Assembly (NCBI GenBank): GCA_017459445.1
Contig: JAFUDJ010000013.1
Coordinates: forward strand, 1-45,971
Reading direction: 5' to 3'
Source of the DNA: Prevotella sp.
GTDB taxonomy: Bacteria > Bacteroidota > Bacteroidia > Bacteroidales > Bacteroidaceae
Length of the DNA stretch: 45,971 nt
Part shown: positions 22,560 to 45,731 of the stretch, piece after piece
How the letters are laid out: every line of letters begins with the position of its first letter
Position numbering within the stretch: the first letter of the stretch is position 1
Made by a program: the position numbers and the translations under genes
Notes under the pieces: generated by a model
Seen by the model: only the letters and a program-made list of their open reading frames with translations
Database searches by the model: none
What the model was told of the DNA's origin: nothing

Positions 22560-22567
22560 TACCTTTG
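22560..22567 (+). promoter_or_regulatory. -7 box of the susCDEF operon
   Basis: TACCTTTG matches the -7 consensus, 66 bases before the susC start. The -33 region is poor (TATG at 22538-22541, 18 bp away), so regulation by a bound factor is plausible. Confidence 0.65.
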
Positions 22568-22568
22568 C

Positions 22569-22584: not shown

Positions 22585-22633
22585 CATGTGGATTTCGAGA
22601 ACTTAAAACCAAATAACTAACTTTAAAAAATTA

Positions 22634-25756: not shown

Positions 25757-25777
25757 TAAATAAATAAGGTATATATT

Positions 25778-27502: not shown

Positions 27503-27540
27503 ACTGATATATCATAAATTTGAAACATAAGAAACGCAAT

Positions 27541-28479: not shown

Positions 28480-28521
28480 TTCATCTCAGTATATATTATA
28501 TAATAAATAATGTATAACAAC

Positions 28522-28546
28522 GGTGGGGAGTCCACTGCTCCCCACC
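28522..28546 (+). terminator. Hairpin between susE and susF, possible attenuator
   Basis: GGTGGGGAG (28522-28530) pairs perfectly with CTCCCCACC (28538-28546) around a 7-base loop. There is no T-run after it, so complete termination is unlikely; partial termination, pausing or protection of the upstream transcript from decay is more plausible. susF starts 19 bases downstream. Confidence 0.5.
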
Positions 28547-28564
28547 CCTATAAAACAAAAGAAC

Positions 28565-30055: not shown

Positions 30056-30090
30056 AATCCCATTGAGGTTTTACCCTACCCTATTCCCTT

Positions 30091-30127
30091 CGGGCGGACA
30101 CCCTCACCGGTGCCCGCCCGTTTTTTT
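30091..30127 (+). terminator. Rho-independent terminator of susCDEF
   Basis: A 12-bp stem with one mismatch (30091-30102 with 30109-30120, GGTGCCCGCCCG) and a 6-base loop is followed by seven T (30121-30127). It closes the operon 36 bases after the susF stop and shows that the downstream amylase is a separate unit. Confidence 0.9.
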
Positions 30128-30131
30128 CATC

Positions 30132-30674
30132 TACACAGGGGCGGTTTTAAAAAGTTTCCTTCACCTTCACATAAGAACGGGAAACGCCTGTATATAGGCG
30201 GTTTGCGCGGGTGCCTGCGTCGCGCGGAGGCTCACGGACGTTCACGGAACCTTCACGGCAACGTGTAACGCTGTAAGCGTATCCGCTTTTCATTTCAGCA
30301 CTTATTACAGCCTAAAGGATGCCTGTTTGTCGGCTTACGGATGCCTGTTTGCAGAAAACGCTCACCGTTTTTGGGAAAACGCTCACCGTTTGCGGAAAAG
30401 CGGTCACCGTTTTCCCACGAATGAGCCTCCGTAAACTGCCGTTAGAGCCTTCGCCAACAGCCGTTAGAGCCTTCACCAACCCCGTTAGAGCCTTCGCCAA
30501 CCACCATCGCACCTCCGTCGCCGACGTCGGCGCACACCCGCCCACCCGTGTGAAGGTTTGTGACGGTTCCAAGCCCCCTTCTTCACGCGCAGGTCCCCCG
30601 CGAACCCCTTTATTTATAGGGGTTTCAGAAAAAGCGTGAAGGTGAAGGTAACTTTTTAAATTCCGCCCTGTGTA
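30132..30674. mobile_element. 543-bp inverted-repeat element, MITE-like
   Basis: The stretch begins TACACAGGG and ends CCCTGTGTA. Its outer 39 bases form imperfect terminal inverted repeats (30132-30170 and 30636-30674, 34 of 39 matching without gaps). Similarity continues inward into a hairpin on each side, CGCCT/AGGCG at 30185-30200 on the left and AACCCCT/AGGGGTT at 30603-30624 on the right, followed by GC-rich sequence. The interior (30317-30501) is built of degenerate units of 20-22 bp. It encodes no transposase; open frames of 86 and 106 codons on opposite strands look like repeat translation. No target-site duplication is visible. It fills most of the gap between susF and the amylase gene. 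It could be a non-autonomous transposable element or a dispersed chromosomal repeat of this lineage. Confidence 0.6.
30317..30501. repeat. Array of 20-22 bp degenerate units inside the element
   Basis: GGATGCCTGTTTG occurs at 30317 and 30339. GAAAACGCTCACCGTTT occurs at 30354 and 30375, with a variant at 30395. CCGTTAGAGCCTTCGCCAAC occurs at 30439 and 30482, with a one-base variant at 30461. Spacings are 22, 21, 20, 22 and 21 bp. Three different unit types share one period. Confidence 0.7.
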
Positions 30675-30800
30675 TGGCTTTCAGAAACAGGATATAAAAC
30701 TATTAATGCTATGGGAGGCGTCAGAGCATCATGCAACCGATTGCATAGAGTTTAGAAATCTATTTTACAGCATTGTTGCGAGGGATACAGGATTAATTTG

Positions 30801-30808
30801 TATATTTG
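30801..30808 (+). promoter_or_regulatory. Probable -7 box of the secreted amylase gene
   Basis: TATATTTG matches TAnnTTTG and lies 29 bases before the chosen start. A TTG at 30776-30778 is 22 bp upstream, slightly wide for the usual spacing. The box lies outside the inverted-repeat element. Confidence 0.55.
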
Positions 30809-30837
30809 CAACAGAAATACTAACCAAACTAACGGAT

Positions 30838-33004: not shown

Positions 33005-35239
33005 TTACTTGACTGCAATCTTCTTACCGTCTACGATGTACAGGCCGGGGCGCAGCAGGCTGAATTCCGTGCCTACATAGCGACCGTCGAGGGTATAGAT
33101 GCGACCCGACGTGGCGACAGGAGCGCCAAGCTCGCGGATAGCGGTAGTGGAAGAAGGAAGGGCAACCAGCACCTCGTCAAGGAAGAAGCGGTACTTCTCG
33201 GCGGCAAAGGTAATGGTAATGCGACCTGTACCCGTCAACGTGGCGGTATAACTCGTCCAATCACCCTTCGTCATCGTGACTGAAGCCGGCGTAACAGTAC
33301 CGCCTTCAACCGACAAGTTCAGCGTCGTGCCGTCCTTGGTTGTGTTCCATGCGCCAGCCTTGAAAGTCATCGTGGTAGTTCCGTCGAGGGCAATGCCAGG
33401 AGTCGTAGCCGTTCCGTGATTGGAACCAGTACCGAAACGGGCACATTGGTTGGAGCTGTAGCCATTGGTATAGGTCCATCCCTCATTGTCGGTCTTTAAG
33501 GCACCAGAGCCGATGTTGCCTGACCACAGGCCGTCGTTGCCACCCTTACCGGCAGCTTCACTGAACGACTCATAGAACAGATAGTTGTCCGTGGGCTGGA
33601 TGACGGGCTCATCGGGGTCGGTTGGGTCAGTTGGGTCGGTTGGGTCGGTTGGGTCAGTCGGGTCGGTTGGGTCAGTAGCACCACCATTGAACTTGAACGA
33701 CATGGTCTTGTCGGCATTCTGCTTGATTTCGGTGATGGGCTTGTTCATGTACTTCGAGCCATCGGTATTCTTGTTATACAAGGAGGCGGCAGGTGTCGAC
33801 GTATTGGTCAGCGAATTGTTGCTGCTGTACGGATAAAGGTCGGTTGATGTCGTCGTAGAGTAATAGTACGAGTTGCTGTCGTCGTTGTTGTCGGCATGGA
33901 AGATGGTGAAGCGCTGGTGGTCGTTGGTTTTCCTGTAGCCATAGGCCAGTTGGCTGGAGGTCACTTTGGTGTTAGGGGTATTATCCTCCCAGATGGTCTT
34001 GTCGAAGTCCACATGGACAATCATGAGTCCCCGGCCTGGCAGACCGGCATCCCACCCTGTCTTCTGGCGGTTCTCCACCATGTAGTACTCATTGCGGTTG
34101 CCATCGTTGTAGATGATATAGGCATCGCCGCCATCGGCTGTCGGCTGCAGGTTCTCTACGGTGACACCCTCCTTGTCCAGCTCGATGGGGTCCATCCATC
34201 CGGCCATCCACTTCTCGTAAGCACAGTAGTTAGGCGGCAGGAAGCCGTTGCCGTTGTAGCTGCCCATATCCATGAGGTCGAACTCACCCATGCCGAACCA
34301 TCCGCCATAGGCCGTGTCGTAGAAGTCGGGATAGCCCAAGCAGTGGGAGAACTCATGACAGAAGGTGCCTATGCCGTCGAGCGAGCCACTGCCGTTCAGC
34401 TCGCTGGAACAGGCGTAGGTATTGATGCGCACACCGTCGAGTGTCTGGGCCATGTCGGACTCCTCCAGATACCACATGTGCGGCCAGATGGTGTTGGAAC
34501 CACCACCGTCGGCCTGTCCCTTGCCGGCATACACGACGAACACCTGGTCCACCTCGCCGTCGCCATCCCAGTCGTAGTCCTGGAAGTTCACGTCAGCATC
34601 GGCAGCCTTGACAGCCTCGACGATGAACTCGTCGGCATGCTGGTCGTTACCCTCGCCGCCAACGTCTTTACCATAATAGCTATAGGTATTCTTGGCGGTA
34701 TAGGGTCCTACGACGTCGAAGTTCAACTCAAACTGCGACACACCGTCCTTGTTCTTGCTCTGCGCCTTGAAGTAGTCGGCCACGGAACCCTTGAAGTTGC
34801 CCGTCGTATAGTTCTCCTTGTTCAGGACATCATTGTATTTGGCCTGGTTGTTGGCCGTCTGGAACTTGGTGGTCGTAAAATTCATCAGAATGACCAAGCC
34901 CTTCTTCTGACCCGTGTAGTGGGTCTGTTCGCCCATCGACACACGGCGGGGAGCCAACCGCTTGGTACGCTTGGCATCTGCCATGCGGCGGCGTGCCTGT
35001 GCCTTGGCAACGACCTGCTGGGCATCAATTACCTGAAAATAATCTGCATCGGCAGCCTGACTGTACGCCGTGCCGTTTGCTGCAAGCCAGTAGTGACCGT
35101 GCTCGTCGCCCACCAGCTGTGCTCTCACCTCTGTACCGTCAGCCAATTTCAGCGTCTGCCAGACGCCGCGCTTGGCCGGTACAGCCATCATCGCTGTGGT
35201 CATGGCCACCAGCGAGAGCGTTAAAAACAATTTCTTCAT
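33005..35239 (-). CDS. M6-family metalloprotease, exported
   Basis: This 744-residue zinc protease is of the M6 (immune inhibitor A-like) family. After a signal peptide and a pro-region (about 21-105) the catalytic domain has HEFSHCLGYPDFYD (His295, Glu296, His299), matching the HExxHxxGxPDxYD pattern. A seven-fold TDP linker separates it from a C-terminal jelly-roll-like domain (NYLFYESFSEAAG onward), and the protein ends in a secretion tail (RIYTLDGRYVG, GLYIVDGKKIAVK). Linker length may vary between strains because it is encoded by a 9-bp tandem repeat. The gene follows the endonuclease gene after 36 bp, so the two are probably cotranscribed to digest extracellular protein and DNA. Confidence 0.93.
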   Translation of the reverse strand: MKKLFLTLSLVAMTTAMMAVPAKRGVWQTLKLADGTEVRAQLVGDEHGHYWLAANGTAYSQAADADYFQVIDAQQVVAKAQARRRMADAKRTKRLAPRRVSMGEQTHYTGQKKGLVILMNFTTTKFQTANNQAKYNDVLNKENYTTGNFKGSVADYFKAQSKNKDGVSQFELNFDVVGPYTAKNTYSYYGKDVGGEGNDQHADEFIVEAVKAADADVNFQDYDWDGDGEVDQVFVVYAGKGQADGGGSNTIWPHMWYLEESDMAQTLDGVRINTYACSSELNGSGSLDGIGTFCHEFSHCLGYPDFYDTAYGGWFGMGEFDLMDMGSYNGNGFLPPNYCAYEKWMAGWMDPIELDKEGVTVENLQPTADGGDAYIIYNDGNRNEYYMVENRQKTGWDAGLPGRGLMIVHVDFDKTIWEDNTPNTKVTSSQLAYGYRKTNDHQRFTIFHADNNDDSNSYYYSTTTSTDLYPYSSNNSLTNTSTPAASLYNKNTDGSKYMNKPITEIKQNADKTMSFKFNGGATDPTDPTDPTDPTDPTDPTDPDEPVIQPTDNYLFYESFSEAAGKGGNDGLWSGNIGSGALKTDNEGWTYTNGYSSNQCARFGTGSNHGTATTPGIALDGTTTMTFKAGAWNTTKDGTTLNLSVEGGTVTPASVTMTKGDWTSYTATLTGTGRITITFAAEKYRFFLDEVLVALPSSTTAIRELGAPVATSGRIYTLDGRYVGTEFSLLRPGLYIVDGKKIAVK
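33614..33676 (-). repeat. 9-bp tandem repeat coding the TDP linker
   Basis: Seven 9-bp units (plus strand TGGGTCGGT/TGGGTCAGT) encode Thr-Asp-Pro seven times between the catalytic and jelly-roll domains of the M6 protease. Unit length is a multiple of three, so copy-number change would alter linker length without breaking the frame. Confidence 0.85.
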
Positions 35240-35275
35240 TACTTCTTTAATACTTTAATAATATAATAATGTGTG

Positions 35276-36913
35276 TTATCTGATAAATACTTTCTTGCCA
35301 TCCACGATGTACAGGCCATGTGTAGGATTGGCCACACGCTGGCCGCGCAGGTTGTAGACCACACGCTGGCCGGAGAGGCCGGTGTGCGTCTGAGCCATGT
35401 CGATGTCGGTGGTGCCAGTGCGCTTCACCCTCATGCTCTTCAGCTGCATGTTGCCTGAGCCCTCATCCACCGAGAAGACTACTGACTGCGCATTGCCCGT
35501 CCATGTCAGGTCGCTGACCGTTCCGACGTTGGCGGAGAGCGTCTTGCTCGTTGTCCTGTCCAGCGTAAACTCAATCTCCTCCAAATGGCCGGTGGCTACG
35601 CTGACGGTGAGCGTATTCTTCTGATAGAGGCGTATCTGGCTGTCGTTCACATAGCGATTATCACCGCTGCCCAAAGAGTAGACCACGGTCACGCCGTCCT
35701 GTGTGCCCACCAAGTCCTGATTGTCGCTCTTCAAGATAGAGCCCTCATAATTGGTGCCAAACAGGGCGTTACACAACAGGATAGTACCCTCGGCAGGCTC
35801 TTCCTCGCCAGTACCGCTGTTCACGATAGTGTAGACGGCAGAGTTCTGATAGCTCTTCACGCCGTCCTTCACGGCAATAGCCTTGACAGTGGCCGATGCG
35901 GTCAGCTCAAAGGGACCTTCATATACCCGGCTGTTCTCCGAAGGCTCTACGCCGTTGGTGGTGTAGTAGATGGTAGCGTCCTCGGTAGCCGTGGTGATAG
36001 TCACCTCTACCCGGTCGTAGTAAGTACCCTCTTCCGGTTCAAACGCCGGCATGGCAACCTCGGGACTGACTTCACCGCCGCCGCCCTGATAGTTGTCGTA
36101 GGAAAAGACCTCGTCCTTTTTGTCGCCCCAGATGTATTCCTCCAGACCGGGATAGTCGACAAAGGGATTGCGGTTGCCCTGCACGTCGTTAGCGGCAATG
36201 GCTGCATTGCGGGCCCGCTCCACGTCGTCGATGGGGTCCAGCTTCGACCAGCGCATCATCATGTCGAAAGTCCAGGTGGCGTAAGGCTGATACTTGGTGC
36301 CGGTAATGACACCGCCACCGCTCCAACTCGTAATGGTACCTTCATAGCACGTGGCGATATAGAAGTAGATACGGGCCAGGTCGCCCTTCACCTCGTCGTT
36401 CGGCTCAAACACCGTATCGCTGTAGCCAGCCACCTTGCAGGGACCAACCTTGGAATAACCGTTGTTCGACTGCCACTTGATAGTGCTTACCTCGCCAAAG
36501 GGGGCGTTGCTACGACGATTGTTCACATAGCCGTCCGTCGGAATGACATGCACAATGTCTGCCTTCGGCGCTCCCCAGCTCTGCGGCACAGAGTGCTCGC
36601 GGTTGTAGACGTCGCCCTCCTGCTGGTAATTACCGGCTTTATCCTTGATATGTACAAAATTGGTTGTATTTGAATACCAGTCCCTGACGTAGCCGTCGGC
36701 ACGGGTGTCCGTCTTCTTATACAGCTCCAGCAGTTCATCATACGATGGCGAGTGCTGCTTCTTGGATATAATGTTGAACAGTGCGGTCTTCAATGCCTCA
36801 CCGCTCTTGCCCGTAGCAGCCTGATAGTATCTGCCCGAGTTGTTTGGTCCTTGTGCCCGACTGCTGCCCAGAACCATCGTCAGGGCTGCCAGCAACAGAA
36901 GTTTCTTAGTCAT
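35276..36913 (-). CDS. Secreted endonuclease I-family nuclease
   Basis: This 545-residue exported nuclease has a His-Me finger domain of the endonuclease I family. Key motifs are REHSVPQSW (105-113, His107 as general base) and DGYVNNRRSNAPFG (127-140). A chitobiase-type/Fn3-like domain follows (about 300-375, ATIYYTTNGVEPSE), then a beta-rich domain (about 385-500) and a secretion tail (VVYNLRGQRVAN, GLYIVDGKKVFIR). The signal peptide is MTKKLLLLAALTMVLGSSRA. It is the first gene of a two-gene unit with the M6 protease and has a good promoter. Likely roles are nutrient scavenging or breaking down extracellular DNA (inference). Confidence 0.92.
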   Translation of the reverse strand: MTKKLLLLAALTMVLGSSRAQGPNNSGRYYQAATGKSGEALKTALFNIISKKQHSPSYDELLELYKKTDTRADGYVRDWYSNTTNFVHIKDKAGNYQQEGDVYNREHSVPQSWGAPKADIVHVIPTDGYVNNRRSNAPFGEVSTIKWQSNNGYSKVGPCKVAGYSDTVFEPNDEVKGDLARIYFYIATCYEGTITSWSGGGVITGTKYQPYATWTFDMMMRWSKLDPIDDVERARNAAIAANDVQGNRNPFVDYPGLEEYIWGDKKDEVFSYDNYQGGGGEVSPEVAMPAFEPEEGTYYDRVEVTITTATEDATIYYTTNGVEPSENSRVYEGPFELTASATVKAIAVKDGVKSYQNSAVYTIVNSGTGEEEPAEGTILLCNALFGTNYEGSILKSDNQDLVGTQDGVTVVYSLGSGDNRYVNDSQIRLYQKNTLTVSVATGHLEEIEFTLDRTTSKTLSANVGTVSDLTWTGNAQSVVFSVDEGSGNMQLKSMRVKRTGTTDIDMAQTHTGLSGQRVVYNLRGQRVANPTHGLYIVDGKKVFIR

Positions 36914-37019: not shown

Positions 37020-37059
37020 TTTGGCTTTTTCCCCCAAAAAGCAGGAAGAAAAAGCCAAA
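37020..37059 (-). terminator. Terminator of the seven-gene exported cluster
   Basis: On the minus strand a perfect 12-bp stem (TTTGGCTTTTTC at 37048-37059 with its complement at 37020-37031) is followed by a T-rich tail (TTCTTTTGTTTTGTTG). It lies 23 bases after the last stop of the cluster. Confidence 0.75.
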
Positions 37060-37081: not shown

Positions 37082-37552
37082 TTACTTAATGATACCGTCT
37101 TCTTGCAAACGGCGCTTCAGTTCGGCACGGTACACACGGACGGTGATGCGATAGCTCTTGAAGAGCTTGTTCTTGGTCTTCACGTTCGAGCGGACCTTAC
37201 GGTCGACCTCCTTGTCGACATACTGCTTATACATGCCGTTGTCGCGGAAGAAGAGGTTGAAGTAGTCCTCATACTTGCGGCGGGCATTCATCTCGCTGAT
37301 AATCGGGCGCGAGTCGCAACCGTTCATGCCGCTGCGGATACCGTCGAAGATAACGGCGGCCACGGCATCCTTCTTGGCTTGCTCAAAGGCGTCTTCCTTA
37401 TTCTTGCCAATGCCGGTGACGCGAAGTGTCTGGCTACCGTCGTTTTCCGAACCCAGGCACTCTATCGCTTCCTTCTGGAACGAGGCGGTCTGTGCCTGCA
37501 TGGCTGTGCAGCACAAAAGGCTGAAAGCCATCACGGTGAATATCTTTTTCAT
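37082..37552 (-). CDS. Small exported protein, LPP20-like, paralogue A
   Basis: This 156-residue protein has a signal peptide (MKKIFTVMAFSLLCCTAMQA) and no lipobox. The centre (LRVTGIGKNKEDAFEQAKKDAVAAVIFDGI) has the alternating strand-helix pattern of LPP20/CsgG-type N-terminal domains, in which a Gly-rich strand leads into an Ala-rich helix. It is related to the 169-residue protein at 40044-40553: both have a YFxxFF...YKQ segment and end with an LxRRLQEDGI / LRKRMEKDGI motif. It is the last gene of the seven-gene cluster and precedes the terminator. Function unknown; an outer-membrane or periplasmic role is inferred from export. Confidence 0.8.
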   Translation of the reverse strand: MKKIFTVMAFSLLCCTAMQAQTASFQKEAIECLGSENDGSQTLRVTGIGKNKEDAFEQAKKDAVAAVIFDGIRSGMNGCDSRPIISEMNARRKYEDYFNLFFRDNGMYKQYVDKEVDRKVRSNVKTKNKLFKSYRITVRVYRAELKRRLQEDGIIK

Positions 37553-37580
37553 CTATTAATCCTTACTTTTATTTTCTTAT

Positions 37581-38036
37581 TTAAAACATCACTGCTTCCT
37601 CGTCAATCAGCAGATACTGCTGACAGATGCCCGTCGGATCCTCGGCCTCGTTGGCAAAGAAGACATAGGCCAGCTTGAGGTTGGAGTTTTCCTCGATGTC
37701 GGTGATAAGCATCTTGGCCGTATAACCGCCTTCAAAGAAATTCTCCAACTGGTAGACACGTACCTTGTCTTCTTGCTCGTAGCTGAGTACACGCCCCGTC
37801 TTCACCCTGTCCTGCGCTATATAATATATATAGGTGGGCGTCGACGTGCTGTCGGGCTGTACGAAGTGGAAGTGGGAACCGTAGCGGCTACACAGGTCTG
37901 ACTCCGACTCGTAGGGCGAAGCAAAATAGATGCTATACCTATGAGCCAGTTTGTCTTTCACCGCATGAACATCCTCGGCATGCGAGAGGCTCACACAGGT
38001 GAAAGACAAAATGGTCAGCACGATGCGTAGCAGCAT
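37581..38036 (-). CDS. Exported protein of unknown function (151 aa)
   Basis: This 151-residue protein has a signal peptide (MLLRIVLTILSFTCVSLSHA, cleavage near AEDV). The rest is a mix of beta-strand-like stretches (YSIYFASPYES, PTYIYYIAQDRV, YTAKMLITDIEENSNLKLAYVFF) with two Cys that could form a disulphide. It reads as a small beta-rich periplasmic protein. I do not recognise a family. It lies 13 bp after the 309-residue protein gene and 28 bp before paralogue A, firmly inside the seven-gene run. Confidence 0.7.
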   Translation of the reverse strand: MLLRIVLTILSFTCVSLSHAEDVHAVKDKLAHRYSIYFASPYESESDLCSRYGSHFHFVQPDSTSTPTYIYYIAQDRVKTGRVLSYEQEDKVRVYQLENFFEGGYTAKMLITDIEENSNLKLAYVFFANEAEDPTGICQQYLLIDEEAVMF

Positions 38037-38049
38037 AGGCTTCTACGGT

Positions 38050-38979
38050 TTACCACCACGAATGGTAGTGATTCTGGACAACAACCCGACGCTTGGCGTA
38101 GGCCACGGCCACGTCGCGGCAGGCACTGAGGCGTGCCTTCTCAATGGCGGTGGCAGCCTTCAGCTTGGCATTCTCGTAGGCCACGGCGTCGCGATACTGC
38201 TGGTCAGTGACATTCTTCACGCGAGCCTCAATCTTGCGCATCAGAGCCTGAGCCTGACCATAGCACTTGGCATCGGAATTAATCTGGCCAAGCAGGCGCA
38301 TGGCCTCGTCGGCAGCAGCACCGGGATTGGGGTCAGCCGACCAAATGGCCTGGGCCTCGGTAAGCAGCTGCTGGGCGTCGTGGTTCATGTGCGATGCATA
38401 TACCTTCTGCATCATGGCCATAGCCTCGCGGTAGCTGGAGCACTCCTCAGGGATAGCCGTCAGCTCAAACAGCGCCTCTTCCCACTGCTGCGAGTTCATC
38501 AATGCCTGGGCCTTGCGGATGATGGCCGGGCCTTGCTGCTCGTAGTAGTTGATGATGCGGTCGCGAGCCTCAGCCACGATGGCTTTCAGCTTCGGCGTCG
38601 TCTTGATGTTCTTCAGAGCCGACGTCATGGCCTGACCTTCGGTATTACCTATGCCGATAACCTCCATCGAGGTAGAGCCGAAGCAGTTGTTGGAGATGTT
38701 GTCGCCAATGGCAAAGGTTATCTCCAGATGCTGAATCAGCTTGGTACCCGACACCTCGCGCTGCAAGGCGGCGACGCGGCAGGCCAGCACGAAGCGCCCG
38801 CCATAGCCGCTCACCATGCCGTTCGACGAGATGACGTTGCGCAGGCGGTTCTCGGCGATGGTCACATTGTTCTCCGTCAGCCCGTCAATCGATGAGTCGA
38901 TATAGGGCGACAGCATGATTTGAGCCTGTGACGGCACGAAAGCCAGCGCGGCAATGATGGTTGCAAAAAACTTTTTCAT
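38050..38979 (-). CDS. Exported two-domain protein of unknown function (309 aa)
   Basis: I chose the ATG at 38979 (MKKFFATIIAALAFVPSQAQ, signal peptide); an in-frame GTG 33 bp upstream falls in the repeat tract. Residues about 30-140 form a beta-rich domain (RFVLACRVAALQREVSGTKL, EITFAIGDN, MEVIGIGNTEGQAMTSALKNI) that recalls CsgG/LPP20-like folds. Residues about 150-290 are helical with TPR-like features (RKAQALMNSQQWEEALFEL, GQAQALMRKIEARV). The protein ends QNHYHSWW. Function unknown. A role as a periplasmic scaffold would fit a helical repeat domain but is not shown. Confidence 0.75.
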   Translation of the reverse strand: MKKFFATIIAALAFVPSQAQIMLSPYIDSSIDGLTENNVTIAENRLRNVISSNGMVSGYGGRFVLACRVAALQREVSGTKLIQHLEITFAIGDNISNNCFGSTSMEVIGIGNTEGQAMTSALKNIKTTPKLKAIVAEARDRIINYYEQQGPAIIRKAQALMNSQQWEEALFELTAIPEECSSYREAMAMMQKVYASHMNHDAQQLLTEAQAIWSADPNPGAAADEAMRLLGQINSDAKCYGQAQALMRKIEARVKNVTDQQYRDAVAYENAKLKAATAIEKARLSACRDVAVAYAKRRVVVQNHYHSWW

Positions 38980-39074
38980 AGCTTCTTTACCTTTTGTTTT
39001 TTCACTATTCACTTTTCACTATTCACTATTCATTAGCGAAGCGCAGTATCACTATTCATTAGCGAAGCGCAATA
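38980..39074 (-). repeat. Intercistronic tract with a duplicated 26-bp hairpin unit
   Basis: Two 26-bp units, read on plus as TTAGCGAAGCGCARTATCACT plus ATTCA, start at 39033 and 39059, each with the small hairpin GCGAAGCGC. The second unit's TATCACT overlaps the stop codon of the DUF6175-like gene (39075-39077). The rest is AATAGTGAAAAGTGAATAG-like purine-rich repeat on the transcribed strand. Confidence 0.7.
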
Positions 39075-40028
39075 TCACTCCACGCCAACGAGGAAGTTGA
39101 CACGTCCCAGCGTGTTGCCCTGTCCCTTGGCAACCTTACGGCCGGTCTCAGCCTTGAAAGCCTTGCGGACACCCTTGGCCCACGTCTCGGGGTCAGTGGG
39201 TTCGCCCTCTTCGTCGAAGAAGGGGATGCGCACGTTCTTGAACTCACACATCTTCTTGGTCTGACGGCCCTTCTTGCCCGACTTGTTCACCGAGTGCTTG
39301 CGAATCCACTGGTGCAGGAAGTCGTTGTAGGTATCCTCGTCGTCGCCAATCTCGTCGCGCAGGAAGTCGATGCCCGAACCGTCGGCAGCACGGAAGATGA
39401 CCACAATCTGACGACCGTTGTTCTTCAGGTCGAGGAAGTAGTCAATCATCTGCTGGCAGAACTCGTCGGCCTTACCGGCAATGACCTTGCGCAGCGCCAG
39501 GTCCAACGGGTCCATCGTACCCTCGATGGTACCTTCGCAGGAAGCCACCTGGTCGTTGGTGTAGGCGTCGACGGCCTTCAGGCGGAACGAGATGTTCTTG
39601 CGGGGACCGAAGGCATGGATGCCATAGTCCAAGTCAACACGGATGTCAGGACGGGCCTGTTGCATCAGTTCGTCCATGGCACCCTTCTCGGTAGCGTCGC
39701 CGTCAGCGGCATTGGCCAGCTCCTCAGCACGCTCGCGCTTCATATCCTTCAGCAGGCTCTGTAAATCCTCCTTCAGGAAGCCGCGCTCGGTGAGCACTTT
39801 CTGAACGGCCTGAATGGCAGTTCCCATCTCACGGCTCTGTACAAAGGCGTCGTTGTACTTGGGAATGTACTCCGTCTCGCCGTCGTTGTTGAAAGTATCC
39901 ATGAAGCCGTGGTCGTTCATCCAGGCGTCATCAGGAAATACGATGATGGTAGGCATGTCGGCCTGCTGTGCCAGAGCTGACAGGCTCATGGCACACAGCA
40001 TCAGTGCGGTAGCAAAAATCTTCTTCAT
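39075..40028 (-). CDS. DUF6175-like exported protein
   Basis: The 317 residues include a signal peptide (MKKIFATALMLCAMSLSALA). The sequence PTIIVFPDDAWMNDHGFM, the ERGFLKEDLQSLLKDM segment, RPDIRVDLDYGIHAFGPRKNISFRL and LKAVDAYTNDQVASCEGTIEG match my memory of the Bacteroidetes DUF6175 family, whose function is not known. The alternation of strands and helices suggests a periplasmic domain resembling the N-terminal half of TolB or CsgG-type proteins (inference). It is central in the cluster, 15 bp after paralogue B. The C-terminal part is Lys-rich (KSGKKGRQTKKM). Confidence 0.75.
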   Translation of the reverse strand: MKKIFATALMLCAMSLSALAQQADMPTIIVFPDDAWMNDHGFMDTFNNDGETEYIPKYNDAFVQSREMGTAIQAVQKVLTERGFLKEDLQSLLKDMKRERAEELANAADGDATEKGAMDELMQQARPDIRVDLDYGIHAFGPRKNISFRLKAVDAYTNDQVASCEGTIEGTMDPLDLALRKVIAGKADEFCQQMIDYFLDLKNNGRQIVVIFRAADGSGIDFLRDEIGDDEDTYNDFLHQWIRKHSVNKSGKKGRQTKKMCEFKNVRIPFFDEEGEPTDPETWAKGVRKAFKAETGRKVAKGQGNTLGRVNFLVGVE

Positions 40029-40043
40029 CTTGTCTTCAATGTT

Positions 40044-40553
40044 TTAACGTGAGAAAATACCTCTTACACCCTGGGCAATGCCGTCTTTCTCCATGCGCTT
40101 ACGCAGGGCGTTGACATTGACCTGTACCAGCAAGCCTACCATGTAGCGCTTGCTGCTGAGCTTCACCACGTCGCCAGCCTGCTGGGCGCCCTTGCTGGTG
40201 AGCTGGATAAACTGCTTATACTCGCCGCTGGCGAAGAAAGCATCGAAATACTCCTTGTGGCTCTCGTAGCCTTCGGGAACGATGGGGGGCACATTGCCCT
40301 GCGTGCCAGAGTCACTGGCAGCCAGTCCCTTGAACAGCAGGCCGTGAATGGCATTGCGCATGCCAATCTCGTTGGTGATGGACTCCTTCTTCTTGCCGTA
40401 GCTCCACACCTTGAACACCTTGAAGCCGGCAGTAGCGGCCACATTCTCCTTGGCCAGCGACAACTCGTAGTCATAGCCCGGGTCGTCGTTCTTGGCCATT
40501 GCCGACGTACACAGCATCGTCAGGGCAAACAGTACCAAATAAATCTTTTTCAT
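40044..40553 (-). CDS. Small exported protein, LPP20-like, paralogue B
   Basis: This 169-residue protein has a signal peptide (MKKIYLVLFALTMLCTSAMA). FKVFKVWSYGKKKESITNEI followed by an Ala/Gly helix (NAIHGLLFKGLAA) repeats the layout of paralogue A at 37082-37552. PPIVPEGYESHKEYFDAFF, EYKQFI and LRKRMEKDGI align with the corresponding segments there. The two genes flank the DUF6175-like, 309-residue and 151-residue genes, so a duplication is likely. Function unknown. Confidence 0.78.
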   Translation of the reverse strand: MKKIYLVLFALTMLCTSAMAKNDDPGYDYELSLAKENVAATAGFKVFKVWSYGKKKESITNEIGMRNAIHGLLFKGLAASDSGTQGNVPPIVPEGYESHKEYFDAFFASGEYKQFIQLTSKGAQQAGDVVKLSSKRYMVGLLVQVNVNALRKRMEKDGIAQGVRGIFSR

Positions 40554-40601
40554 ATCGTTTATTCTACCTTTTTACTCTTTTACTTTTTACCTTTTTACTT
40601 T

Positions 40602-41966
40602 TTATTTAGACAGGCGAATCATGCAGCCTTCACCCATCTTGCCGGGCTTGCCCTGGAACTCGGTGTAACCCTTGTTGTTGGCACCCTCGGCATCCTTGTC
40701 GGACTTATCCTCTGATGCACCCTCGATGACTTCACCGGCGCCGGCGCGGTTGTCCCATACGCCGCCCTTGGCAACCTTGATGGTACCAATCTTGTTCCAC
40801 TCAGTGATGTTGGGGTCCTTCTTGGAACGGACAGCCTCGAAGACGTCAAACTTGTCGCCAGCCTTCACACCTTCCTTCAGGCCGATGTAGGCAGCGAGCT
40901 TGCCGTCGATGACGTGGAGCGACGACATGGGACGGAACTCCTCATGGTCACGCTGCAGGGCAGCAAAGGCAGCATCGGTACCACGGACGGTTCCTCGTGC
41001 AATCAGCTTCTCCAAGGAGGTAGAGGCCTTCAGCGAGATAGCGGCAGGAGCATACTTCGATGACTTGCCGACGTATGCCAGCTTGAAGGAAGCATCGTCC
41101 ATGAATCCCTGCGGATTCTCCCAGTAGTTAGTATAGAACTTGTTGTACAGGTCCTCGTTCCAGTCGAGTTTGAACAGATAGGCATTGGCACGTACGAAGT
41201 AACCCTTGATTTTCGATGCAATGAGGTCGAGACCCTTAGAGGCAGCCAACTGGGCGATACCGGGCAAATGACTGATAGCTATCTTGGCAACGGCAGTAGC
41301 CACGGCGGCATACTCCTGTGCGCTGGCATAGCCATAGCGGTTGACGCAGACATAGGTATTGGCGAGCAGCTTATTCTCGGCACCGTATGCCATGCTGGTT
41401 TTGTTTTCGGTAGCCACGGCATTGTCGTAAGCCTCCTGACTCAGCCCCTTCAAGCCCAACTCGTAGATGGTCTTCAGGTCCTTATCCCACTCGGTGCTAC
41501 CCTCGGGAGAACCGGGCACGTTGTGCCACTTGGCGACCAGCTTCTGCGCTACCTTGTTCTGCTCAAACCACTTGGACAGGCGGGCTGCATACTCATATTC
41601 GCTGAGGGTGTTGGCATTCTTCAGACCCTGCGACACCATGGCGTCGGCAATGGCCTTATCAACAGCCGTCTGCGAACCGAACTGCTTGATTTCCTCGGCC
41701 GTGGCAGTAGGCAGCTCCTCGAACTTGATGTGGCGCTCGCTGAGCGAGAAGTCGTTATAGCGCTCGTAGTTGCGGGCAAAGTTGATGGAGTCGAAGGTCT
41801 CGTTCATCACCTTGAAAGCCTCGGCATACTCTTCGTTACTGGCTACCTCGTCAAGCTTCATCACATAGATGGAGTTGCGGATGTAGTACTTGTCGGGGTC
41901 TTCCTGGGCGAAGACATTGGATACACACACAGCTGCGAGAGCTGACACCAAAAGATACTTTTTCAT
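40602..41966 (-). CDS. Exported protein of unknown function (454 aa)
   Basis: This 454-residue protein has a signal peptide (MKKYLLVSALAAVCVSNVFA). The first 200 residues are helical and charged. A mildly hydrophobic Ala-rich stretch (AAVATAVAKIAISHLPGIAQLAASKGLDLIASKI, about 222-255) could be membrane-associated or an amphipathic helix. The C-terminal part (about 345-454) looks like a beta domain (GKLAAYIGLKEGVKAGDKFD, GTIKVAKGGVWDNRAG) similar to those in outer-membrane-associated assembly proteins. I do not recognise a family. It is the second and largest gene of the cluster, 30 bp after the coiled-coil lipoprotein gene. Confidence 0.75.
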   Translation of the reverse strand: MKKYLLVSALAAVCVSNVFAQEDPDKYYIRNSIYVMKLDEVASNEEYAEAFKVMNETFDSINFARNYERYNDFSLSERHIKFEELPTATAEEIKQFGSQTAVDKAIADAMVSQGLKNANTLSEYEYAARLSKWFEQNKVAQKLVAKWHNVPGSPEGSTEWDKDLKTIYELGLKGLSQEAYDNAVATENKTSMAYGAENKLLANTYVCVNRYGYASAQEYAAVATAVAKIAISHLPGIAQLAASKGLDLIASKIKGYFVRANAYLFKLDWNEDLYNKFYTNYWENPQGFMDDASFKLAYVGKSSKYAPAAISLKASTSLEKLIARGTVRGTDAAFAALQRDHEEFRPMSSLHVIDGKLAAYIGLKEGVKAGDKFDVFEAVRSKKDPNITEWNKIGTIKVAKGGVWDNRAGAGEVIEGASEDKSDKDAEGANNKGYTEFQGKPGKMGEGCMIRLSK

Positions 41967-41996
41967 AATTGTGATTGTTAGGTTTTAATATGTTTT

Positions 41997-42836
41997 TTAT
42001 TTTTGGATAATCAGATACGGCGAAGCGGCCCAGAAAGCCTGCTGGTCGGTGATGGTCAGCGTCGAGGTGCCATCCTCGTTCTTCTCCAGCGTATAGGAGC
42101 TCTCGGGTTTGGGAGTCAGCAGCTTGGGCTTCTTGGAGTCGATTTTCAAGGTTGTCACATAGCGCTTATCCTTCTTGATGAACTTGCTCTGGTCGATGTT
42201 GCTCATATTGGCAGTCTTCTTACCCAGGAAACCGGCTCTTTCCACCAAGCCCAGTTCCTTCAGCTCCTTCTTGTCGGCAATGATGTAGAACACCTGGTTC
42301 AGCTGCTTGTCCTGCTCGTAGTTCTGGTCAGCCAGATACTCACGCTCCTGGGTCACGACGTTCAGGTCGTAGCGCAGCTCGCTGATACGGGCATCCTTCT
42401 TCTCGACAGCCTCTTCCAGCTTGGCAATCTGCTTGGTCTTGGTTTCCAGTTCCTGCTTCAGGAAGTCTACCATCTTGTTCAGGTTGGCAATGGTGGCCTT
42501 GTTCGACTTGTTGTTGGCAGTCAGATTGTTGATTTCTGCCTGCTTGCGGCCTAACAGGTCTTTGAAGGCGCGCAGACGCTCCAGCACCTGCTGCTTCGAA
42601 GCATTCTCGTCGGCTTTGAACAGGAGATTCTCCTGCACCTGGATAGAGTCAAGGCAGGCAGAGAGCGCGTTGATGACACCCTCCATCTCCTGCACCTCTT
42701 CCTGAGCCAGGGCCTCGTTTACCAATGTTGAGTCACTCGTGATGTCGGCCAGTGCGTCCGACGAACCGCTTTTGCCATTGCAGGCACAAAGCATGAGAGC
42801 TACTGCGAAAGTAGCCAGAAACGATAGTTTTTTCAT
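41997..42836 (-). CDS. Coiled-coil lipoprotein heading the exported cluster
   Basis: This 279-residue lipoprotein has lipobox LCAC (Cys19). Residues about 45-185 form a long coiled coil (EINNLTANNKSNKATIANLN, QELETKTKQIAKLEEAVEKK). A compact C-terminal region (about 190-279, FYIIADKKELKELGLVERAG through ASPYLIIQK) is beta-rich. Similar coiled-coil lipoproteins are common in Bacteroidales, with unassigned function. It is the first gene of the seven-gene run, with a -7 box about 90 bp upstream, and anchors at least one component in a membrane. Confidence 0.8.
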   Translation of the reverse strand: MKKLSFLATFAVALMLCACNGKSGSSDALADITSDSTLVNEALAQEEVQEMEGVINALSACLDSIQVQENLLFKADENASKQQVLERLRAFKDLLGRKQAEINNLTANNKSNKATIANLNKMVDFLKQELETKTKQIAKLEEAVEKKDARISELRYDLNVVTQEREYLADQNYEQDKQLNQVFYIIADKKELKELGLVERAGFLGKKTANMSNIDQSKFIKKDKRYVTTLKIDSKKPKLLTPKPESSYTLEKNEDGTSTLTITDQQAFWAASPYLIIQK

Positions 42837-42925: not shown

Positions 42926-42933
42926 CAAATATA
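42926..42933 (-). promoter_or_regulatory. Probable -7 box of the seven-gene cluster
   Basis: TATATTTG on the minus strand lies 89 bases before the lipoprotein start at 42836. A TTG at 42952-42954 is 18 bp upstream, close to the -33 spacing. The leader is AT-rich without a visible structure. Confidence 0.55.
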
Positions 42934-43074
42934 CTGCATTTTTTTTAATTACAAGCCACAAATTACAAAAAAATGCACCAAAACTGTCCCAAAATACCTA
43001 ATACCTATTTCTGATTAATCTGTTTTCGAGTCACTTTTGGGCACGCCATGGGCAAAATGCCCTACTTTTGAGTA

Positions 43075-43228: not shown

Positions 43229-44170
43229 TTATGCTTTGTTGAACTTTGCCTTGGGTTGCTTGCAACGCGGGCAGCGCCAGTCGTCGGGCAGGTCTTCGAA
43301 TGCCACGCCGTCGTGCTCTGCCGGGTCGTAGACATAGCCGCAGACGGAGCAGACATATTTTCCTGATGCCTCCTGTTTGGTGAAATCGACCTCTGCCAGT
43401 ACGGTCGGAACGGGGTTGTCCAAATCCATCACGCGCTTGGCCTCTAAGTTCTCATAGCCCTGCGGGGTGTGGGTGCCCATATAGACGGTGGGATTGTTGC
43501 GCACGAATTCACGCACACGGTCCAGCGTCTCGCGGGCTGCGGGCAGGTCGTCGTAGACCACCGACAGTTTGTTTTCATACAGCGCCTCATCGACATAGGT
43601 AATGTCGGCCTGGAACATATAGTAGAGCCCGTCGCTCTCAGCAATCACGAGGCTGTTGCCGTTGGTGTGTCCCTTGGCCTTGACGAACCATACGCCGTCG
43701 CAGATTTTCTGCGTCTCAGGGAAGTTGTGATAGGGACCATCGGTGTAGGTCACGGGTACCACGTTCGTCAGACCCTTCAGCTCTTCTGCCTGCGTCTCGT
43801 CGGCTCCTACATAAATCTTCGCATTGGGGAACGAACGGAGTTCACCGCTGTGGTCGCCGTGGCGGTGGGTCAGAAGAATCTTCGTCACCTGTTCGGGCTT
43901 GTAACCCAGGGCGGCCAGCGCATCCATATAGTCACAGATGTTCTTGCCGGTATAGGCCATGGCCTTCTCGTCGACAACCTCCTCGGGGAAGCCTGCGGGC
44001 AGGCCGGTATCTACGAGGATGACCTCCGTACCGGTGTCAATGAGATAGTTCTGCAGACTGCCGCGATAGCGGATGTTGTGGTCAAACTTGTCGGGGCCTT
44101 CCTCGCCACCGAAAGCGAAGGGCTGGGTGTAGTACCCGTCGCGTCTGAATTTTACTGCTTTGATTTCCAT
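43229..44170 (-). CDS. Metallo-beta-lactamase-fold hydrolase fused to rubredoxin
   Basis: This 313-residue cytoplasmic protein has an N-terminal metallo-beta-lactamase domain (about 1-245) with THRHGDHSG (H102, H104, D106, H107), then H168, D189 and H234, the two-metal set of AiiA-type lactonases. A C-terminal rubredoxin (about 270-310) has CSVC (274/277) and CPRC (300/303), giving a one-iron redox site. The motif is HxHxDH rather than the HxExDH of flavodiiron oxygen reductases, so an NO or O2 reductase is unlikely. It ends a run with a flavodoxin and a radical SAM gene, 44 bp after the latter. The substrate, and why a hydrolase carries a redox domain, are unknown. Confidence 0.88.
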
Positions 44171-44214
44171 TGTTTATGAGTTTTTAAGTTTATGAGTTAT
44201 CAGTTTGTGAGTTT
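44171..44214 (-). repeat. Intercistronic AT-rich repeat
   Basis: On the transcribed strand the spacer is built of AACTCAYAAACTTAAAAACT-like units repeated with small changes. It links the radical SAM and MBL-rubredoxin genes and is different in sequence from the spacers of the starch run. Confidence 0.6.
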
Positions 44215-45327
44215 TTAAGTTTGTGAGTTATTTTCTATCATTTGCGCTACCTCGTTGCGATGCTCGTAGAGGGCACAGCCGCCAGAGTGCTCGCCGCCTA
44301 CGAGATGAACATCACGCAGTTTGCGGAATAAAGGTGAGGTGAGGGCGCCCTTTACACCCAAACTGATGACATTGCTGTCGCTGAACGGGGAGAAGGGGCA
44401 GGGCTCTGCCGAGCCGTCGGGAGCGATATGGAAGAATCCGCGGCCAGCAGCCAGACAGCCACCCATGTGTTGCTCGTCACCAGGGAAGGAGATGATGATG
44501 ACATCCTCGTAGCGCTCCCGCTGATGGACTTGCACCGCCTCCATCCTGGCCAGGTCAGCTTCGCCAAATGCCAGATATTCGGTGCCAGCCTCGGTCGGGA
44601 CGTACTCCACATAGATGATAAGCTTACAGCCGAGGTCGCGCAAGTTGTCGACGAACTCGTCAGAGGTCACAAGGTCGAAGTTCTCTGTCGTCACCGTGAT
44701 GCTCGTGCCAAAGAACAGGTCCTCTTCATGCAGCATTTCAACCGACTGCATGGCGCGTCGGTACATACCCTTACCGCGACGTTCGTCCGTCGAGTGTTCC
44801 ATGCCTTCGATGCTGATAACGGGTATCATGTTCAGGTGCTTCTTCAGAAAGTGGACATACGACGGTCCGATGAGCGTCCCGTTGGTAAAGATGGGGAATA
44901 TCATATCCTTCACCTCGGCCACTGCCTCCAGGATGTCCTTGCGCATCATGGGTTCGCCACCCGCCAGCAAGGCAAAGTTGATGCCCAGCGATGCCGACTC
45001 TTCAAAGATGGCCTTCCACTGGTCAGGCGAAAGGGTTGTCTTTTGTTCTTCTGCACTATCTGCCGCTATGCCGTTGGCACGCGCATAGCAACCCTTGCAA
45101 TGCAGATTGCAGATGGTGGCAATAGAACAGATGAGGAAGGGTGGCACGTCTACCCCCTCCTGTTCCTTTACCTTCTTGCGCCGCTTCTCTGACTTGGCGA
45201 ACAGCTGTTGCATGCGGAATGCAAACTTTGCCTCGCGGGGATTTGACAGCACATTACGGTAAGCCTTGGCCATGATACGGCTGATACTGCCGTTCATGTA
45301 GGCTGCTAAGTCGATAGTAGCCGTCAT
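44215..45327 (-). CDS. Radical SAM protein with SPASM-like C-terminal cysteines
   Basis: This 370-residue enzyme has the radical SAM cluster motif CNLHCKGC (C73, C77, C80), the AGGEPMMRKD motif (SAM binding) and FTNGTLIG. Three further Cys (C291, C310, C351) in the C-terminal third could bind an auxiliary Fe-S cluster as in SPASM proteins. The segment DGSAEPCPFSPFSD is typical of that region. It overlaps the flavodoxin gene by 4 bp, so an electron donor is encoded alongside it. No short substrate-peptide gene was found nearby, so peptide maturation is not supported. The reaction is unknown. Confidence 0.88.
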   Translation of the reverse strand: MTATIDLAAYMNGSISRIMAKAYRNVLSNPREAKFAFRMQQLFAKSEKRRKKVKEQEGVDVPPFLICSIATICNLHCKGCYARANGIAADSAEEQKTTLSPDQWKAIFEESASLGINFALLAGGEPMMRKDILEAVAEVKDMIFPIFTNGTLIGPSYVHFLKKHLNMIPVISIEGMEHSTDERRGKGMYRRAMQSVEMLHEEDLFFGTSITVTTENFDLVTSDEFVDNLRDLGCKLIIYVEYVPTEAGTEYLAFGEADLARMEAVQVHQRERYEDVIIISFPGDEQHMGGCLAAGRGFFHIAPDGSAEPCPFSPFSDSNVISLGVKGALTSPLFRKLRDVHLVGGEHSGGCALYEHRNEVAQMIENNSQT

Positions 45328-45731
45328 AGGGTGGACTCGATAAATGATGCCAATGCCTCGTAATCGGCCTGATTGGGGTGGCCGGCCTGAATGGGACCCA
45401 TAGAACCACGGCAGGTGAACTGACGCTCGTCGACCGTGATGCCCTGTTTCTCGAAGAGTGCCTTGATTTTGGGATAGTTGCTCTCAATGATGGCTGCCGA
45501 CGAGAAGCAGATGACACGCCCAACCTTGTCGGGGGAGAGCGTCTTGATGAACTTCTTCACGCGCCAGTCAACAACGGCGGCGTAGACAGCAGAGCCAAAG
45601 TAGAGCACGTCGACGTACTCATTGATGGGCTGTTCAATAGTCTCGGCGGGCACTCCCACCTTCTCGGATACGATTGCGGCCATCTTGCGGGTGTGGCCAA
45701 ACTTGCTGTAATAGCGAATTGCTTTTGTCAT
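45324..45731 (-). CDS. Flavodoxin-like protein
   Basis: This 135-residue FMN-binding-type protein begins with MTKAIRYYSKFGHTRKMAAI, in which YYSKFGHTRK matches the flavodoxin phosphate-binding loop pattern (S/T-x-x-G-x-T-x). Strands DVLYFGSAVYA and GRVICFSSAA fit the fold. It overlaps the radical SAM gene by 4 bp and likely feeds electrons to it (inference from the operon). The protein is at the short end for flavodoxins. Confidence 0.85.
   Translation of the reverse strand: MTKAIRYYSKFGHTRKMAAIVSEKVGVPAETIEQPINEYVDVLYFGSAVYAAVVDWRVKKFIKTLSPDKVGRVICFSSAAIIESNYPKIKALFEKQGITVDERQFTCRGSMGPIQAGHPNQADYEALASFIESTL

What the first reader, a model, noticed from the sequence alone, without database searches (positions are those of the whole stretch)
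37082..42836. Seven-gene run of exported proteins with unknown function
Lipoprotein coiled coil, 454-aa protein, LPP20-like paralogue B, DUF6175-like protein, 309-aa two-domain protein, 151-aa beta-rich protein and LPP20-like paralogue A all carry signal peptides. They are packed with gaps of 13-95 bp, a promoter box at one end and a terminator at the other. None has an enzyme motif. The mix of LPP20/CsgG-like domains, a coiled coil and helical repeats suggests a multi-part periplasmic or outer-membrane assembly, perhaps for surface fibres or a transport complex, not previously described to my knowledge.
Basis: partly seen in the sequence, partly recalled or inferred. Interest (0 to 1): 0.75.

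Follow-up and report, generated by a model that had tools for sequence, protein, structure and literature searches.

The report
Undescribed outer-membrane gene cassette in Bacteroidota
Five of these seven exported proteins belong to an undescribed gene cassette found across the Bacteroidota, apparently built from the same kinds of parts as the curli exporter and the outer rings of flagella, so it probably forms a complex under the outer membrane whose job is still unknown.

Summary
The seven-gene run is real: seven minus-strand genes with gaps of 13-95 bp, signal peptides (by eye), a Bacteroidota-type promoter box in front and a hairpin behind. It is not one seven-part system. The core is four families: p2, the small paralogues p3/p7, DUF6175 (p4) and p5. 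p5 lies within 300 nt downstream of p4 in 59 of 63 loci. p4 and p5 occur in 45 genomes each of the same 201, 42 shared. The cassette recurs outside the order. p1 is a divergent Cbp1-family lipoprotein, a family in 178 of 201 related genomes. Within the 63 loci, p1 and p6 join the cassette only in the window and its closest relatives. A CsgG/LpoB-type protein with a FlgT_C-like tail is present in 18 of 63 loci and p2 in 33; none has both. p2, p4 and p5's N-domain show profile similarity to it. p3/p7-type and p4 are fused in 12 genes, p5's N-domain to LPP20 in four. Best reading: an outer-membrane-tethered periplasmic complex of CsgG/FlgT-type parts.

The parts
42926..42954 (-). Bacteroidota-type promoter box TTG-N18-TATATTTG, about 90 nt before the p1 start codon
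   Evidence: on this strand TAnnTTTG occurs at 42933 and next at 36991; consensus recalled
41997..42836 (-). p1: coiled-coil lipoprotein of the Cbp1 family (279 aa), lipobox-like pattern at Cys19, divergent paralogue
   Evidence: NF052320 220 bits (cut-off 90); own genome has 4 matches, the best one elsewhere (C9, 339 bits); lipobox pattern
40602..41966 (-). p2: 454-aa exported protein, core family; C-terminal part of the family resembles the C-terminal half of CsgG/LpoB + FlgT_C proteins; lacks the barrel-like tail of some longer relatives
   Evidence: 92% over 78 columns; relatives L118 4.0e-5 and L063 5.1e-4; the window's own copy not found at 0.01
40044..40553 (-). p3: 169-aa exported protein, small paralogue clade B
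   Evidence: no Pfam family
39075..40028 (-). p4: DUF6175 protein (317 aa), core family; possible CsgG/LpoB-type fold
   Evidence: PF19672 264 bits (cut-off 23); (64%, 56% and 89% against the CsgG-type family)
38050..38979 (-). p5: 309-aa exported protein, core family; N-terminal domain possibly of CsgG/LptE-like type, then TPR-like helices
   Evidence: weak TPR; LptE 5tse, E 0.0096 and 0.033; domain fused to LPP20 in four relatives
37581..38036 (-). p6: 151-aa exported protein, lineage-specific
   Evidence: no family; relatives only in L063 and L064/L086 among the loci searched
37082..37552 (-). p7: 156-aa exported protein, small paralogue clade A (lipobox-like in some relatives, not here)
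37020..37059 (-). terminator-like hairpin of 16 pairs with T-rich tail, after p7

Best explanation
The run is one operon that carries an undescribed, phylum-wide Bacteroidota cassette (p2 or a CsgG/LpoB-FlgT_C protein; one or two small paralogues p3/p7; DUF6175 p4; p5) plus two lineage additions (p1, p6). Its products are exported by Sec and, I think, form an outer-membrane-tethered complex in the periplasm, built largely from CsgG/LpoB/FlgT-type domains. SHOWN: core co-occurrence and gene order; p2 and a CsgG/LpoB-FlgT_C protein as alternatives; natural fusions of the p3/p7 type with p4, and of the p5 N-domain with LPP20; lipobox-like patterns in p1 and in some p3/p7-type relatives. INFERRED: one transcript (from spacing, promoter box and hairpin); that p4, p3/p7 and p5 touch one another (from fusions and adjacency). 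Tethering to the outer membrane is through p2's barrel where there is one, through lipidated p3/p7-type proteins in others, and through the Cbp1-type lipoprotein p1 here. The CsgG/FlgT-type domains oligomerise, perhaps as a ring, and the TPR-like part of p5 docks a partner. Most likely role: a structural or regulatory scaffold for an envelope process, in the way that FlgO/FlgP/FlgT buttress flagella or LpoB activates a peptidoglycan synthase, rather than an export pore.
For: Core order conserved: p5 within 300 nt downstream of p4 in 59 of 63 loci; a p3/p7-type gene within 300 nt upstream of p4 in 44 of 63, and fused to p4 in 4 more. p4 and p5 share 42 of 45 genomes each among the same 201, and the three p5-only matches are fragments with E 4e-4 to 8e-4. 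Same cassette outside the order: L226 and L227 (p2 type), L228 and L229 (CsgG type). CsgG-type protein in 18 of 63 loci, always on the strand of p4 (15 upstream, 3 downstream); p2 in 33, both in 0, neither in 12 (chance of no overlap 3e-8 if loci were independent, which they are not). Of the 17 CsgG-type members aligned (18 found; one of 567 aa left out), 14 match Pfam LpoB, 13 FlgT_C and 11 CsgG at E up to 0.1; their profile finds Vibrio FlgT in the PDB at E 0.006, after a designed protein at 0.003. That profile finds two p2 proteins directly (L118, 4.0e-5, also seen as L026; L063, 5.1e-4). With signal peptides cut off, profile-profile scores are 92% with p2 and 64% with p4; p4 widened gives 88.7% and the widened p5 N-domain 71.3%. 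The 36 controls against the CsgG-type profile reach at most 3.3%. 12 distinct p3/p7-p4 fused genes and 4 LPP20-p5N fused genes. Barrel-like tails with terminal F/Y/L in 9 of 37 p2 (by eye) and in L226.
Against: No structure could be predicted, so every fold claim rests on profiles. Before widening, p5 against the CsgG-type family is only 31%, and p3/p7 against LPP20 references 1.2%. Of 37 p2 proteins in the loci, the CsgG-type profile finds only two at E 0.01, and not the window's. In one search, with a CsgG profile that had drifted, the scores were 56% for p4 and 10.5% for the p5 N-domain. Controls of the other families reach 11% (p3/p7 with neighbour family null5) and 9.1% (p4 reversed). FlgO and FlgT_C Pfam matches are 1 of 53 p4 members (E 0.0027) and 1 of 29 p2 members (E 0.066). 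14 of 63 loci have no p3/p7-type gene, 12 have neither p2 nor the CsgG type. Apart from the core and the CsgG type, no neighbour family occurs in more than 11 of 63 loci, so no partner machine is in sight. The cassette is patchy: 45 of 201 genomes of the family.
Confidence: 0.52

Rival explanations
1. Peptidoglycan-synthase regulator: the CsgG/LpoB-type member (or p2) reaches from the outer membrane to activate a penicillin-binding protein, as LpoB does in E. coli; the other proteins are its accessory subunits.
For: Pfam LpoB is the commonest match of the CsgG-type protein (14 of 17). The window also holds a transglycosylase-transpeptidase (3620-6094), but it is about 31 kb away and such genes are universal (recalled).
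Against: LpoB, CsgG, FlgO and FlgT share related folds (recalled), so the label is not specific; 13 of 17 also carry a FlgT_C-like tail, which LpoB lacks (recalled). The cassette is present in only 45 of 201 genomes, whereas cell-wall synthesis is universal.
Confidence: 0.15
2. Curli-like export of surface fibres: the CsgG-type protein is the pore and some p-gene is the fibre subunit.
For: CsgG-type domain in the alternative protein (11 of 17 at E up to 0.1); barrel-like tails in some p2.
Against: No gene among the seven looks like a CsgA-type repeat subunit (translations, by eye). The 17 aligned CsgG-type members start with plain signal peptides rather than a lipobox (by eye), and Pfam CsgG matches only part of the model.
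Confidence: 0.07
3. Adhesion operon: p1 is a collagen-binding adhesin and the rest helps to display it.
For: p1 belongs to the Cbp1 family, and Cbp1 of Bacteroides fragilis was shown to bind collagen (PMC3949742, abstract and section 17 read).
Against: Cbp1-family genes are over cut-off in 178 of 201 genomes, DUF6175 in 45, and the own genome's better Cbp1 match is on another contig. No p1-like gene was found in the fetched stretch of 59 of 63 cassette loci, with a profile made from five sequences.
Confidence: 0.06
4. Accessory factor of the type IX secretion system.
For: 38 of 45 cassette genomes have GldM.
Against: GldM is nearly as common overall (155 of 201). Seven cassette genomes have no GldM match: the incomplete own genome and G258, G301, G332, G349, G417 and G445.
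Confidence: 0.04

Closest known systems
FlgO/FlgP/FlgT, the outer-membrane ring or disk parts of polar flagella (Vibrio, Campylobacter)
   Same: FlgT_C-like and CsgG-type domains in the alternative to p2; LPP20-type partners in or beside the cassette in some relatives. In flagella, FlgP, Lpp20 and FlgT share the SHS2-like fold, and FlgP and FlgT form rings at the outer membrane (PMC12222027, passages read).
   Different: No flagellar gene among the neighbours that I annotated (the neighbourhoods were not annotated in full); Bacteroidales are not flagellated (recalled). The window's p2, p4 and p5 have no Pfam match to flagellar proteins; relatives have only weak ones.
CsgG / LpoB superfamily
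   Same: The alternative to p2 matches both models over cut-off in L079.
   Different: Here it is always beside DUF6175, in most loci with p5 and the p3/p7 type; plain signal peptide (by eye); no curli subunit seen beside it.
Cbp1 family collagen-binding lipoprotein of Bacteroides fragilis
   Same: p1 is a member by the curated model and has a lipobox-like pattern.
   Different: A divergent paralogue placed at the head of this operon in one lineage; collagen binding untested.
DUF6175 (PF19672)
   Same: p4 is a member.
   Different: The family is named in no paper of the library; here it gets a cassette, fusion partners and a possible fold.

Membership tests
DUF6175 (PF19672) | Score over the Pfam gathering cut-off | tested here: met
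   p4: 264 bits against 23; 53 of 53 aligned relatives match the model
Cbp1 family (NF052320) | Score over the curated cut-off | tested here: met
   p1: 220 bits against 90
Cbp1 family (NF052320) | Lipobox lipoprotein | tested here: met
   Pattern match ending at Cys19 (a loose pattern)
Cbp1 family (NF052320) | Binds type I collagen | not testable with these tools
   Needs purified protein; reported for B. fragilis Cbp1 in PMC3949742
LPP20 (PF02169), for p3 and p7 | Pfam match over cut-off | tested here: not met
   0 of 52 members match at E 0.1
LPP20 (PF02169), for p3 and p7 | Profile-profile similarity to LPP20 references | tested here: inconclusive
   1.2% with LPP20 references; 8.9% and 10.4% with an LPP20-like neighbour family (null7); 11% and 28% with null5, whose own link to LPP20 is weak
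CsgG/LpoB superfamily, for p2 | Homology to CsgG/LpoB-type proteins | tested here: inconclusive
   Profile of 17 CsgG-type proteins finds two p2 relatives (L118 4.0e-5, L063 5.1e-4) but not the window's p2 at 0.01; profile-profile 92% over 78 columns; no Pfam CsgG or LpoB match
CsgG/LpoB superfamily, for p4 and p5 | Homology to CsgG/LpoB-type proteins | tested here: inconclusive
   p4 64%, 56% and 88.7%; p5 or its N-domain 31%, 10.5% and 71.3%; no Pfam match
FlgO/FlgP/FlgT ring proteins | Pfam FlgO, FlgT_N/M/C or LPP20 match over cut-off in the window's core proteins | tested here: not met
   None in the window's proteins; in relatives FlgO 1 of 53 p4 (E 0.0027), FlgT_C 1 of 29 p2 (E 0.066), bit scores not printed
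FlgO/FlgP/FlgT ring proteins | Ring around a flagellar LP ring | not testable with these tools
   Needs electron cryo-tomography; absence of flagella in this order is recalled
Curli secretion system | CsgA/CsgB subunits with CsgE/CsgF | not tested
   None seen among the seven proteins by eye; genome not searched for them
Type IX secretion accessory | Occurs only with the type IX core | tested here: not met
   7 of 45 cassette genomes lack a GldM match, six of them besides the incomplete own genome

The most novel reading that the evidence does not exclude
Non-flagellated Bacteroidota own an outer-membrane-associated ring or basal-disk machine made of CsgG/FlgT/SHS2-type parts, ancestral or parallel to the FlgO/FlgP/FlgT rings of flagella, which supports an envelope-spanning apparatus not yet seen. 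DUF6175, p5 and the p3/p7 proteins are its ring subunits, and p2 is its membrane anchor.
Probability: 0.25. Interest if true: 0.82.

Novelty: new variant of a known kind. Interest (0 to 1): 0.6.

Why it matters
It turns several families without function (DUF6175, p2, p5, p3/p7) into one testable unit with a conserved order, fusion partners and a likely place in the cell, in rumen-type and more distant Bacteroidota. If the CsgG/FlgT reading is right, outer-membrane ring parts known from flagella and curli have a third, non-motile use, and the question 'what does the ring serve?' can be asked with deletions and tomography in cultivable Bacteroidota.

Tried and rejected
Sigma-70 promoter and terminator scans are at chance level and were not used alone. 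Naming p3/p7 as LPP20 was dropped after 0 of 52 Pfam matches and weak profile scores; a PDB search with a widened p3/p7 profile found no flagellar or LPP20 chain. High first profile scores that included signal peptides (p4 96%, p5 94%) were replaced by runs with the signal peptides cut off by a simple pattern (64% and 31%). The score of 100% between the CsgG-type profile and p2 was discarded because the widened profile grew from 27 to 88 sequences and appears to have taken in p2 proteins; the reversed controls in that call failed (import error, stale numbers) and were redone. The first p3/p7 model had drifted (71 to 132 sequences), so p3/p7 counts were redone with a clean model (45 of 63 loci instead of 46, 14 of 65 lipobox-like instead of 18 of 69). 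The PDB searches with p2, p4 and p3/p7 profiles gave nothing usable. Plasmid search: no match. Type IX link weakened. DNA named by organism was limited: the single genome-contig scan gave three loci.

Rows dropped or chosen: the 63 loci are the window, L062, L063 and 60 regions that I picked from the places printed (40 regions, 41 of 56 places; 20 of 78 places); some genomes give two loci. L064 has the length and scores of L086 and is taken as the same record; it was left out of counts. Alignments A1-A4 leave out short, very long or odd members (29 of 36, 53 of 63, 46 of 57 and 52 of 66 listed); A5 has 17 of 18 CsgG-type members. The profile controls were 30 neighbour families plus reversed alignments; null2 and null7 proved to be LPP20-like cassette neighbours (91.8% and 96.9% with LPP20 references), and null5 may be, so they are not true negatives. 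InterPro number IPR046173 used as a term was recalled and may be wrong.
Full report
WHAT IS THERE. Seven open frames lie on the minus strand from 42836 to 37082. In order of transcription they are p1 279 aa, p2 454 aa, p3 169 aa, p4 317 aa, p5 309 aa (320 from an upstream GTG), p6 151 aa and p7 156 aa, with gaps of 30, 48, 15, 95, 13 and 28 bp. All start with a Sec-type signal sequence (read by eye). A Bacteroidota-type promoter box (consensus recalled) lies at 42954-42926, and the next such -7 box on that strand is at 36991, in front of the following gene. A 16-pair hairpin with a T-rich tail is at 37059-37020. The window's genome is a 2.0-Mb draft, 55% complete. The nearest named relative found, by p4, is a Prevotella MAG (L062, 81% identity).

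FAMILIES. p1 is a member of the Cbp1 lipoprotein family (220 bits, cut-off 90). Cbp1 of Bacteroides fragilis was identified as a collagen-binding outer-membrane lipoprotein (PMC3949742; abstract and section 17 read). The family is over cut-off in 178 of 201 genomes of the window's family. The own genome has four matches, and its best is on another contig. p4 is DUF6175 (264 bits, cut-off 23). p5 has weak TPR matches. p2, p3, p6 and p7 match no Pfam or NCBIfam family usefully. DUF6175 is not named in any paper of the library (PF19672), and CsgG + LPP20 + Bacteroidetes gave none.

DO THE GENES TRAVEL TOGETHER? DUF6175 is found in 67 of 295 genomes drawn from the order, 45 of 201 from the family, and 9 of 198 in the phylum sample, own genome included. 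I fetched 60 neighbourhoods out of the places printed and added L062, L063 and the window: 63 loci. p5 is present in 60 of 63 and lies within 300 nt downstream of p4 on the same strand in 59 (exceptions L070, L094, L103, L104; median gap 16 nt). A separate p3/p7-type gene is in 45 of 63, within 300 nt upstream of p4 in 44; in four more loci it is fused to p4; 14 have none. p2 is in 33 of 63, before or after the p4-p5 pair. p1 is in four loci (window, L062, L063, L086) and p6 in three (window, L063, L086). In the same 201 genomes, p4 and p5 each occur in 45, of which 42 are shared; the three p5-only matches are short and marginal. Outside the order the same order of genes recurs: p2-p3/p7-p4-p5 in L226 and L227, CsgG-type-p3/p7-p4-p5 in L228 and L229. 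The core is therefore p2, p3/p7, p4 and p5; p1 and p6 are additions of a lineage whose named members (L062-L064) appear to come from ruminants (record titles; RUG read as rumen from memory).

p2 AND THE CsgG-TYPE ALTERNATIVE. In 18 of 63 loci another exported protein, mostly of about 280-310 aa, is encoded on the same strand, 15 times upstream of p4 and three times downstream; none of these loci has p2, and 12 loci have neither. The hypergeometric chance of no overlap is 3e-8 if loci were independent, which they are not. Of 17 members aligned, 14 match Pfam LpoB, 13 FlgT_C, 11 CsgG and 3 FlgT_M at E up to 0.1; L079 is over cut-off for LpoB and CsgG but not FlgT_C. Their profile finds Vibrio FlgT in the PDB at E 0.006 (the first hit, a designed helical protein at 0.003, is taken as chance). 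This profile also finds two p2 proteins, L118 at 4.0e-5 and L063 at 5.1e-4, L118 in the region of the CsgG C-terminal half plus FlgT_C and L063 in the FlgT_C part; the window's own p2 and the rest of the 37 are not found at 0.01. Profile-profile comparison gives 92% over 78 columns. So p2 and the CsgG-type protein look like alternative, distantly related occupants of one role; this is probable, not proven.

p4, p5 AND p3/p7. With signal peptides cut off, the CsgG-type profile scores 64% with p4 along 135 colinear columns and 31% with p5. A FlgO-type reference, a positive control, scores 67.5%; 36 controls score at most 3.3% against it. After distant homologues are added, p4 gives 88.7% and the p5 N-domain 71.3%; a variant with a drifted CsgG profile gave 56% and 10.5%. 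The p5 profile finds LptE, E 0.0096 and 0.033, which is suggestive only. p3 and p7 fall in two supported clades (p3 in one of 21 rows, 98/99; p7 in one of 18 rows, 98/93; 52 rows in all), each with members in many genomes, and 20 loci carry two or more copies, so they are old paralogues. They are not shown to be LPP20: no Pfam match in 52, 1.2% with LPP20 references, 9-10% with one LPP20-like neighbour family, 11-28% with another whose own link is weak.

FUSIONS. p3/p7-type and p4 are one protein in 12 distinct genes (L113, L015, L016, L017, L020, L100, L103, L104, L222-L225). In L222-L225 the gene after that fusion is an LPP20 protein (Pfam over cut-off in all four genomes) whose C-terminus is the p5 N-domain (E 1.4e-7 to 2.6e-3). 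Other LPP20-like genes lie near the cassette in further loci (families null2 and null7, in 7 and 5 loci). Such fusions often join proteins that act together; that is inference.

ANCHORS. Nine of 37 p2 proteins carry a C-terminal extension of beta-barrel look ending in F, Y or L (L095, L097, L098, L111-L113, L116, L117, one of two in L119, judged by eye), as does L226. A lipobox-like pattern is found in 14 of 65 p3/p7-type proteins. In the window p2 has no such tail and p7 no lipobox, but p1 is a lipoprotein by pattern. The near relative L062 has both p1 and a lipobox in its p7-type protein, so p1 is not simply a substitute. I infer that the complex is held at the outer membrane by different means in different lineages.

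HOW IT MOST LIKELY WORKS. Shown: co-occurrence, gene order, alternatives and fusions. Inferred: a periplasmic complex tethered to the outer membrane, built from CsgG/LpoB/FlgT-type domains, with p3/p7-p4-p5 as its centre and the TPR-like helices of p5 as a docking arm. In flagella, proteins of the FlgP/Lpp20/FlgT fold form rings under the outer membrane (PMC12222027, passages read), and a Helicobacter lipoprotein ring there preserves the barrier (PMC11756786, passages read). By analogy a scaffold or ring is the leading guess, at about one in four for a true ring machine. Rivals are a peptidoglycan-synthase activator, curli-like export, adhesin display and a type IX accessory; the last is weakened by seven cassette genomes without GldM.

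VERDICT. The single-system idea holds for a core of four families (five genes here), not for all seven.

Noticed in passing
window 38980-39074 and 40554-40601: The gaps before p5 and before p3 hold short direct repeats (units like ACTGCGCTTCGCTAATGAATAGTG, and like AAAAGTAAAAAGG), seen by eye.
   Followed up: no
window 33005-36913: The two genes downstream are an M6-type peptidase and an endonuclease I with chitobiase-type C-terminal domain; both end in a GLYIVDGKK-like tail that resembles type IX sorting tails (recalled).
   Followed up: no
window 43229-45731: Upstream, a metallo-beta-lactamase-fold protein fused to rubredoxin, a radical SAM protein and a flavodoxin-like protein (below Pfam cut-off) form a second tight run on the same strand.
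   Followed up: no
window 17200-32907: Starch-use region: 4-alpha-glucanotransferase with CBM20, sugar transporter, LacI-type regulator, TonB-dependent receptor, and an amylase with CBM26.
   Followed up: no
L065:11409-13259, L074:11459-13033: A WG-repeat protein (L065) lies between p5 and a p2 gene, and a gene of similar size lies in that place in L074; the family is in 9 of the 63 loci, always on the strand of p4. Its role is unknown.
   Followed up: partly
L076:13233-13754, L090:8093-8674: A family of about 190-aa exported helical proteins lies near the cassette in 11 loci, always on its strand; the L076 member has no Pfam family over cut-off.
   Followed up: no
L229:4658-8833: Three adjacent CsgG-type proteins precede p3/p7-p4-p5; those of 520 and 572 aa match the tail region of the profile twice, the second match weak.
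   Followed up: partly
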